From the NCBI GenBank assembly GCA_019240115.1, contig JAFAYV010000052.1:1-64000 (forward strand): 64,000 bases of DNA, in the 5' to 3' direction. This document shows, in pieces, positions 6,958 to 8,950 of this stretch. Position 1 is the stretch's first letter. Each line of letters starts with the position of its first letter. Source of the stretch: Solirubrobacterales bacterium. GTDB taxonomy: Bacteria > Actinomycetota > Thermoleophilia > Solirubrobacterales > Solirubrobacteraceae. A program made the translations under genes and the position numbers. The notes under the pieces are model-generated. The model was given only the letters and a program-made list of their open reading frames with translations, ran no database searches and was not told the origin of the DNA.

Positions 6958-7021
6958 CCGAGCACAGACAATTCGGACGATGTCCGTCCATAGTGTCCGT
7001 CCATATGGCCTGAGCAAGGGC

Positions 7022-8062
7022 TCAGGAGGTAGGTGATTCGTCTCCAGAGCCCTTCAAGCTCCCGATCCCCAGCGAACCGTCGCCCGATGCAGGCGTATCC
7101 TCCTCGGCGCTGGGTATCGCGGCGGCCGCTGGGGCGGGCGGGTCGTCGAGGAAGTCGTTCGTGGGAACGAAGAAGAGATTGCCGGTGACCGCGGTGGAGA
7201 AGTCGAGGATCCGGTCGTAGATGCCCGGCGGCTTGCCGATGAACATGTTCTCGAGCATCTGCTCGATCACCTCCGGGGTGCGGACGTAGCCGATGAAGTA
7301 GGTGCCGAACTCCTGCGCGCCGACGCGGCCGAACGGCATGTTGAAACGCATGATCTGGTGCTGGTCGCCGTTCTCGTCGACGATTGTGTTCAGCGTGAGG
7401 TGCGCGTTCGCGGCTTTCTCGGCGTCGGGGAACTCGACGTCGTTGAGCTTCGTCCGGCCGAAGGCTCGCTCCTGCTCCTCGACGGTCAGGCCGTTCCAGC
7501 CCGCGAGATCGTGGAGATACTTCTGGGGGACGACGTAGCTGCCGCCGGCGAACTCGGGGTCCTCGTCGCCGATCAGCACCTGGGCGGGCGCCGCCGGCCA
7601 GTCGGGGTTCTCGGTGCCGTCGACGAACCCGAGCAGGTCGCGCTCGTCGAACGACCTGAAGCCGTGCACCTCGTCGACAACCCGCGCGTACGGATCGAGT
7701 CGATCGGTGAGCAGTTGCGCGAGCTCGAAGCACAGGTCGAGGCGATCGGCCCGGAGGTGGAAGAACAGGTCGCCGGGCGTTGCGGGCGCGTGGTGCCGGG
7801 AGCCGTTCAGCTCGCGAAACGGGTGAAGTCCGGCCGGGCGCGGCCGGCCGAACAGCCGATCCCATACCGCGGCGCCGACGCCGACCACACAGGTCAGTCC
7901 GGCCTCCGGGATCCGGAACCCCACCGAGCGCCTGAGTCCGTTGATTGCCGACAGCACGTCGCGGACATCATCCTCGGCCCCGTCATGAATGGTGAGCGTG
8001 AGGAACATCGCCGCCGACGTAGTCGGGGTCAGAATCGCCTGCGGCTCGGCGGCCGCCATCAT
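7022..8062 (-). CDS. Dye-decolorizing heme peroxidase (DyP type) with encapsulin cargo-loading peptide
   Basis: 346 residues. The DyP signature GFVDGTENP (145-153) supplies the catalytic Asp148; the likely proximal heme His is H221 and the distal Arg R239 (IMRFNMPFG). The last 19 residues are DGSLGIGSLKGSGDESPTS: after a Pro/Ala-rich linker, SLGIGSLKG matches the known C-terminal peptide that directs DyP into encapsulin nanocompartments. No encapsulin shell gene is adjacent on either side; neighbours are a convergent flippase and rpe. GGAGG is 4 nt before a second ATG (8059), so the true start may be one codon later. Confidence 0.95.
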   Translation of the reverse strand: MMAAAEPQAILTPTTSAAMFLTLTIHDGAEDDVRDVLSAINGLRRSVGFRIPEAGLTCVVGVGAAVWDRLFGRPRPAGLHPFRELNGSRHHAPATPGDLFFHLRADRLDLCFELAQLLTDRLDPYARVVDEVHGFRSFDERDLLGFVDGTENPDWPAAPAQVLIGDEDPEFAGGSYVVPQKYLHDLAGWNGLTVEEQERAFGRTKLNDVEFPDAEKAANAHLTLNTIVDENGDQHQIMRFNMPFGRVGAQEFGTYFIGYVRTPEVIEQMLENMFIGKPPGIYDRILDFSTAVTGNLFFVPTNDFLDDPPAPAAAAIPSAEEDTPASGDGSLGIGSLKGSGDESPTS

Positions 8063-8219
8063 GCCTCCATGTTCGGGAGCGCGCCAACCCTAGCGCTCCC
8101 TGGTGCCGCGGGAAGGATCCGCGTGCTCGGTCGCGCCCTGATCCGGCGGCCGTGGCGGGTACCCGCGTAGCGCGCCCCCACCAGCAGGCCGAGCGCAATC
8201 CTCAACGTATCGGTACGTG

Positions 8220-8256
8220 GCGGTGGCGGCGGCGGCGGTGGCGGTGGCGGTGGCCT
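8220..8256. repeat. CGGTGG/GGCGGC simple repeat
   Basis: Low-complexity run of GGTGGC and GGCGGC units in the 192-bp gap between rpe (stop at 8255) and DyP. Nothing else is recognisable in that gap. Likely slippage product at the 3' end of rpe. Confidence 0.6.
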
Positions 8257-8950
8257 AAGCCGCGCCCGCGGCCGACGCGATGCTGCGATAGGTGCCCGCC
8301 GGGTCGTCGGACCCGAACACCGCGGAACCGGTCACGAGCATGTTCGCGCCCGCCTGCACGATCGGTCCGGCGGTCTCGTCGTGGATGCCCCCGTCGACCT
8401 CGAGGCCGACGTGATCGGGCAGCAGCGCGCGGAGCCGGGCAACCTTGGCGAACGAGTGCGGGATGAACGACTGGGCTCCCCAGCCGGGGTTGACCGTCAT
8501 GCACAGGGCCATGTCGAGCGCGCCGTCGGCGACGTCGGCGAGGGCCTCGATCGGCGTCGCGGGGCAGAGCGCCGCCGAGGCGGCGCAGCCGGCGTCGCGG
8601 ATCGCCGCCAGCGCGTAGTGGACGTGCGGAGTCGCCTCGACGTGGATCGTGATCGAGTCGGCGCCCGCGCCGGCGATGTCGGCGATGTGGCGTTCGGGAC
8701 GGTCGACCATCATGTGGACGTCGATGATCGCGCCGGCGTCGTGGACGACATCGGCGAGCGCGGAGACGACGACCGCCCCAAAGGTGATCGGCGGCACGAA
8801 GTGGCCGTCCATGACGTCGACGTGGATGACCCGCGCGCCCGCGTCGAGCACCTCCTGGACGTGCGAGCCGAGCCGCGCGAAGTCCGCGGACAGGATCGAG
8901 GGCGCGACGCGCCGCTGCGTCAGCGAGACCGTCCCGGGGCCCTCCGCCAT
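8255..8950 (-). CDS. rpe: Ribulose-phosphate 3-epimerase
   Basis: 231 residues. It interconverts ribulose 5-phosphate and xylulose 5-phosphate in the pentose phosphate pathway. APSILSADFARLG, VDVMDGHFVPPITFG (metal His and Asp), HMMV, MTVNPGWGAQSF and LEVDGGI are the ordered TIM-barrel active-site motifs. It is followed closely upstream by a zinc-ribbon gene and then rsmB/fmt on the same strand, the common fmt-rsmB-rpe order. Confidence 0.97.
   Translation of the reverse strand: MAEGPGTVSLTQRRVAPSILSADFARLGSHVQEVLDAGARVIHVDVMDGHFVPPITFGAVVVSALADVVHDAGAIIDVHMMVDRPERHIADIAGAGADSITIHVEATPHVHYALAAIRDAGCAASAALCPATPIEALADVADGALDMALCMTVNPGWGAQSFIPHSFAKVARLRALLPDHVGLEVDGGIHDETAGPIVQAGANMLVTGSAVFGSDDPAGTYRSIASAAGAA

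What the first reader, a model, noticed from the sequence alone, without database searches (positions are those of the whole stretch)
7022..8062. DyP peroxidase with an encapsulin targeting tag but no encapsulin gene beside it
The C-terminal SLGIGSLKG after a Pro/Ala linker is the established cargo-loading signature of encapsulin-packaged DyP enzymes. In known actinobacterial systems the shell gene is normally adjacent. Here neighbours are a convergent flippase and rpe. Either the shell is encoded elsewhere (split system), the tag serves another shell, or the shell was lost.
Basis: partly seen in the sequence, partly recalled or inferred. Interest (0 to 1): 0.7.

Follow-up and report, generated by a model that had tools for sequence, protein, structure and literature searches.

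The report
Shell-tagged peroxidase with distant ferritin shell
The peroxidase carries an address label for packaging into a protein nanocompartment; the single shell gene of this type sits elsewhere in the genome next to an iron-storage protein with the same label, so the peroxidase is most likely a second cargo of that iron-storage shell, an arrangement shared by many related bacteria.

Summary
Window 7022-8062 (-) encodes an intact encapsulated-type DyP with tag DGSLGIGSLKG, followed by eight residues, and no shell gene is adjacent.

The genome has one family-1 encapsulin, on another contig at least 35 kb away. It lies directly behind an encapsulated ferritin (EncFtn) ending GSLGLGSLKG. The tag motif occurs twice genome-wide: in the DyP and in that ferritin.

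This is a lineage pattern, not an artefact. In the order, all 17 genomes with this DyP carry an encapsulin, against 35 of 151 overall (p = 4e-13); class-wide it is 19 of 19 against 59 of 399 (p = 1e-17). Twelve such genomes have DyP and shell on separate contigs. Two keep EncFtn, shell and tagged DyP in one cluster. Six DyPs that lack the tag come from genomes with no encapsulin.

The shell belongs to an EncFtn-type clade, not to the shells that normally carry DyP, and retains the tag-binding residues R/D/D. Secondary cargo encoded in trans is a known idea; a DyP in that role on a ferritin-type shell across an order appears undescribed in what I could search. Whether both enzymes share one particle is inferred.

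The parts
7022..8062 (-). dye-decolorising peroxidase (encapsulated subgroup), 346 aa
   Evidence: catalytic D148, H221, R239, N241 present (roles from own knowledge of DypB)
7049..7075 (-). encapsulin targeting peptide SLGIGSLKG (residues 330-338)
   Evidence: conserved at protein level with synonymous codon turnover
7076..7141 (-). Pro/Ala/acidic linker between DyP domain and tag
   Evidence: sequence; unconserved in relatives
7025..7048 (-). eight residues SGDESPTS after the tag
   Evidence: sequence
8064..8068 (-). GGAGG ribosome-binding site of the DyP gene
   Evidence: sequence
6974..6990 (-). terminator-like hairpin just downstream of the DyP gene (weak)
   Evidence: 1 found against 0.6 in shuffles
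8255..8950 (-). rpe, upstream on the same strand (neighbour, not part of the system)
   Evidence: PF00834

Best explanation
The DyP is a cargo, encoded in trans, of the genome's only family-1 encapsulin, a ferritin-type shell whose operon is EncFtn-Enc on contig C67. Shown: the intact DyP and tag, the sole shell gene, the sole other tagged protein (EncFtn), conserved tag-binding residues in the shell, genome-wide co-occurrence of DyP and shell, and joint absence of tag and shell. Inferred: after separate translation the C-terminal SLGIGSLK inserts Leu/Ile/Leu into the shell's inner hydrophobic pockets, with Lys to Asp39 and backbone bonds to Arg35/Asp232, so DyP hexamers are captured during shell assembly alongside EncFtn decamers, or in a separate pool of shells when DyP is expressed. 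Inside, EncFtn oxidises Fe(II) and iron is stored while DyP uses H2O2, making a combined iron-storage and peroxide-detoxifying compartment.
For: Single PF04454 gene, C67:28363-29115, E 3e-76. EncFtn just upstream, overlapping it by 4 bp and ending GSLGLGSLKGASR. The motif is found only in these two proteins. Order: 17 DyP genomes, all with encapsulin, 35 of 151 overall, p 3.7e-13; class: 19 of 19 against 59 of 399, p 1e-17. Tagged DyPs without a neighbouring shell have a shell elsewhere in 12 of 13 genomes; 6 untagged DyPs have none in 6 of 6. The core [STG]L[GS]IG is retained in 20 of 20 DyPs with variable codons while the linker is near random. Shell residues equivalent to Kp Arg34/Asp38/Asp229 are conserved in 32 of 32 shells; mutating Kp tag residues Leu340, Ile342, Leu345 or Lys346 abolishes loading (PMC10960027). 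G148 and G063 hold EncFtn-Enc...DyP in one cluster. G129, G133 and G400 have DyP directly beside a shell of the same EncFtn-type clade.
Against: No expression, co-purification or structural data. No shared regulatory sequence was found upstream of DyP and EncFtn. The nearest DyP relative, L010 (tag SLSIGSLRDS), lies in a MAG with no encapsulin found, possibly from incompleteness. In a few split relatives (G077, G068, G114, G083) the third hydrophobic or basic tag position is altered, which in Klebsiella would abolish loading. In M. tuberculosis cells only the core cargo was found in native particles (PMC8229669).
Confidence: 0.85

Rival explanations
1. The tag is a relic: the DyP once shared an operon with a DyP-type shell that was lost, and the enzyme is now free in the cytosol.
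For: The DyP's wider relatives sit beside DyP-type shells of another clade, and such a shell is absent here. Some relatives have worn third tag positions.
Against: The window's tag is complete. The core is kept in 20 of 20 relatives despite codon turnover. Where the shell is really absent the tag is gone, in 6 of 6 genomes; 4 independent phylogenetic pairs all agree, though p is only 0.125.
Confidence: 0.08
2. Separate populations (a sub-variant of the best explanation): DyP and EncFtn use the same shell gene product but at different times or in different particles, never together.
For: No common upstream element was found. DyP sits behind housekeeping genes and EncFtn in its own operon. Some genomes keep the shell and DyP with no EncFtn found.
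Against: EncFtn-Enc...DyP clusters in G148 and G063 suggest joint use; M. xanthus co-packages core and secondary cargo (PMC8229669).
Confidence: 0.4
3. Binning or assembly artefact: DyP and shell are adjacent in reality, or one contig is contamination.
For: The genome is a 99-contig assembly with 4.2% estimated contamination.
Against: DyP is 7 kb and the shell 28 kb from their nearest contig ends, so at least 35 kb apart. C66 and C67 match the genome's tetranucleotide profile (r 0.967-0.981 to the centroid of other contigs). Well-assembled genomes G068 and G139 (about 10 and 9 contigs) show the same split deep inside long contigs.
Confidence: 0.03

Closest known systems
DyP-encapsulin core operons (M. 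smegmatis/M. tuberculosis, B. linens, R. jostii, K. pneumoniae)
   Same: Same DyP family, same C-terminal targeting peptide, same family-1 shell fold with conserved tag-binding residues
   Different: There DyP lies directly upstream of the shell; here it is unlinked, and the shell belongs to the EncFtn-type clade whose core cargo is ferritin
EncFtn encapsulins (R. rubrum, H. ochraceum)
   Same: EncFtn-Enc operon with a GSLG[IL]GSLK/R tag
   Different: The descriptions I read concern EncFtn cargo only; here a DyP with the same tag is encoded elsewhere in the genome
Family-1 systems with secondary cargo (M. xanthus EncB core, EncC/EncD in trans; M. tuberculosis DyP core, BfrB/FolB in trans)
   Same: Additional tagged cargo encoded away from the core operon
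   Different: Roles are reversed relative to M. tuberculosis: ferritin is core and DyP is in trans; the tag is the ordinary core-type tag, not the divergent BfrB/FolB type

Membership tests
Encapsulated-subgroup DyP peroxidase | DyP N and C domains with the heme-site residues | tested here: met
Encapsulated-subgroup DyP peroxidase | C-terminal targeting peptide after a flexible linker | tested here: met
DyP family-1 core operon | DyP directly upstream of the encapsulin gene | tested here: not met
   shell is on another contig, at least 35 kb away
Family-1 encapsulin (shell) | PF04454 HK97-type shell over full length | tested here: met
Family-1 encapsulin (shell) | Tag-binding residues (Kp Arg34, Asp38, Asp229; hydrophobic 230) | tested here: met
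   R35, D39, D232, L233
EncFtn core operon | EncFtn-like ferritin with tag directly upstream of the shell | tested here: met
Secondary (in trans) encapsulin cargo | Tagged protein encoded outside the core operon of a genome with a shell | tested here: met
Secondary (in trans) encapsulin cargo | Physical encapsulation in the shell | not testable with these tools
   needs co-purification or cryo-EM

The most novel reading that the evidence does not exclude
Across this actinobacterial order a ferritin-type encapsulin has adopted DyP peroxidases as a second cargo, mostly in trans and repeatedly re-linked, so that ferroxidase and peroxidase work in one compartment as a coupled iron/peroxide module.
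Probability: 0.45. Interest if true: 0.6.

Novelty: new variant of a known kind. Interest (0 to 1): 0.42.

Why it matters
Surveys of encapsulins largely assign cargo by the gene next to the shell, so cargos encoded in trans are easily missed. Here the same peroxidase class that is the commonest core cargo elsewhere is, throughout a lineage, encoded away from a ferritin-type shell. This gives a set of genomes with linked, split, dual-cargo and cargo-lost arrangements in which one can ask directly whether one shell carries both a ferroxidase and a peroxidase, and how cargo moves between shell lineages.

Tried and rejected
Shell lost: rejected, one PF04454 gene found. Family-2 encapsulin as host: no PF19307 match, but no control rang, so weak. 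More tagged cargos: strict and relaxed motif searches found only DyP and EncFtn in this genome; the relaxed pattern is too loose to be useful in other genomes. Second DyP-like gene on C52: a 129-aa fragment with no tag. Shared regulation: local alignment and palindrome search of the two upstream regions gave nothing beyond shuffles. Conserved gene neighbourhood of the DyP (rpe, rsmB, fmt, def): not found around relatives' DyP genes, apart from a stray def-like match in L013. The M. tuberculosis cargo paper (PMC4140288) is not held, so statements on BfrB/FolB rest on a review and a later paper. Structure prediction was not run, since sequence identity to solved DyPs and shells is high.

Full report
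Observation. The window gene 7022-8062 (-) encodes a 346-aa DyP peroxidase with complete N and C domains. Its closest solved relatives are encapsulated DyPs such as M. smegmatis 7bok, aligned through the tag. The tail reads GDGSLGIGSLKGSGDESPTS, so eight residues follow the tag. The heme-site residues D148, H221, R239 and N241 are in place (roles from own knowledge of DypB). Upstream is rpe on the same strand; downstream is a convergent membrane-protein ORF without a Pfam match.

The shell. The genome (4.03 Mb, 99 contigs, 95.6% complete) holds one family-1 encapsulin at C67:28363-29115 (-), E 3e-76. It overlaps by 4 bp the end of an EncFtn-like ferritin ending GSLGLGSLKGASR. The motif S-L-G-x-G-S-L-[KR]-G occurs exactly twice in the genome, in these two proteins, and never for the reversed control. 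The DyP is 7 kb from its contig end and the shell 28 kb from its own, so they are at least 35 kb apart. Both contigs fit the genome's tetranucleotide profile.

Binding site. In the Klebsiella DyP encapsulin, tag residues Leu340, Ile342, Leu345 and Lys346 are each essential for loading, and shell residues Arg34, Asp38, Asp229 and Ile230 were singled out in the binding site (PMC10960027). The window tag supplies L, I, L and K at those positions. The C67 shell has R35, D39, D232 and L233, and R/D/D are conserved in 32 of 32 shells of the order.

Co-occurrence. In 151 genomes of the order, 35 have an encapsulin and 17 have this DyP; all 17 are among the 35 (p 3.7e-13). In 399 genomes of the class, 19 have the DyP and all 19 are among 59 with encapsulin (p 1e-17). 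The two sets overlap and genomes are related, so the p-values overstate independence. Within the window's own genus the first sample had three genomes with both genes and eight with neither; the class sample adds four with shell but no DyP and four with neither.

Arrangements. The union of both sets is 21 DyP genomes. Twelve have DyP and shell on different contigs (G000, G101, G108, G083, G021, G077, G068, G110, G114, G130, G132, G139), including two well-assembled ones, G068 and G139, where both genes lie deep inside long contigs. G129 and G133 have DyP-Enc. G147 has DyP 3.4 kb before Enc. G400 has Enc-DyP. G148 and G063 have EncFtn-Enc followed by DyP 1.8-2.2 kb on. G195, G205 and G270, from another family of the class, have the conventional DyP-Enc. 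In G083, G077, G108 and G021 no complete EncFtn was found, so there the trans DyP may be the only cargo; these are draft genomes.

Tag and shell absent together. Among loci from the genome collection, 13 tagged DyPs without a neighbouring shell come from genomes of which 12 have a shell elsewhere. Six untagged DyPs (Actinomycetospora, three Nocardioides, Tahibacter, Pseudomonas viridiflava) come from genomes with none. Several Solirubrobacterales loci are the same genomes as in the order sample and should not be counted twice. On the tree the tag state changes at least 5 times; 4 independent well-supported pairs all go with shell presence, too few for significance. The exception is L010, a MAG with tag but no shell found.

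Conservation of the tag. In 20 DyPs of this group the core [STG]L[GS]IG is kept while codons vary (CTG/CTC/CTT, GGG/GGC/GGA) and the linker is near random. The third hydrophobic and basic positions are kept in most, but altered in G083, G077, G068 and G114 and partly in L011.

History. The window DyP belongs to a supported clade of mostly this order (100/95) nested among actinobacterial DyPs that sit beside DyP-type shells; resolution inside the group is modest. All shells of the order that were placed, including those with a cis DyP, fall in a different, strongly supported clade with EncFtn-operon shells (100/99, 100/100). DyP and shell trees therefore disagree: a DyP of a lineage normally served by DyP-type shells is paired with a ferritin-type shell. 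The direction of change is inferred, because trees were rooted by midpoint or chosen outgroup.

Mechanism. Shown: tag, shell, binding residues, co-occurrence, joint absence. Inferred: capture during shell assembly, and a joint iron/peroxide function. EncFtn oxidises Fe(II), an oxidant used in ferroxidase activity links these systems to oxidative-stress protection, and encapsulin deletion sensitises M. xanthus to peroxide (PMC11202242), so a peroxidase in the same compartment is plausible. One particle or two populations remains open.

Known context. Core and secondary cargo are established terms, with M. xanthus the shown natural case and M. tuberculosis BfrB/FolB shown on co-expression (PMC8229669; PMC11830004). 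In the family-1 survey DyP appears as core cargo, 1,505 systems (PMC8346489). I found no description of DyP as in-trans cargo of EncFtn shells, nor of encapsulins in Solirubrobacter, but most subscription papers, including the 2017 family-1 survey, were not searchable.

Noticed in passing
L095, L107, L118, L104 (genomes G083, G077, G108, G021): Encapsulin retained but no complete EncFtn beside it or elsewhere; in L095 an upstream ORF ends DLGIGSMKGQGR, like a leftover tag, and L118 keeps only fragments.
   Followed up: partly
L124, L125, L128, L122 (DyP tails): Tags SLGIGGRRDADLA, SLGIGNART, SLGIGPARDATL and SLGIGGIGAG keep the first half but alter the third hydrophobic or basic position that is essential in Klebsiella.
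   Followed up: partly
L123 and L136 (genome G021): Two tagged DyP paralogues on separate contigs with one encapsulin.
   Followed up: no
L006 (G000:C52:60305-60652): A 129-aa DyP C-terminal fragment of another DyP type, without encapsulin tag.
   Followed up: partly
window 8200-8255: CCACCG-type GC-rich repeat directly after the rpe stop codon, in the rpe-DyP intergenic region.
   Followed up: no
L014 (CAMCUD010000004.1): Record titled Bifidobacterium breve carries the same DyP tail and the same DyP-Enc pair as genome G129 of this order; probably a mislabelled MAG.
   Followed up: no
L137, L138, L139: Two alphaproteobacteria and Frankia canadensis show the same pattern: a tagged DyP with no shell found nearby, and an EncFtn-like gene directly beside the encapsulin elsewhere.
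   Followed up: partly
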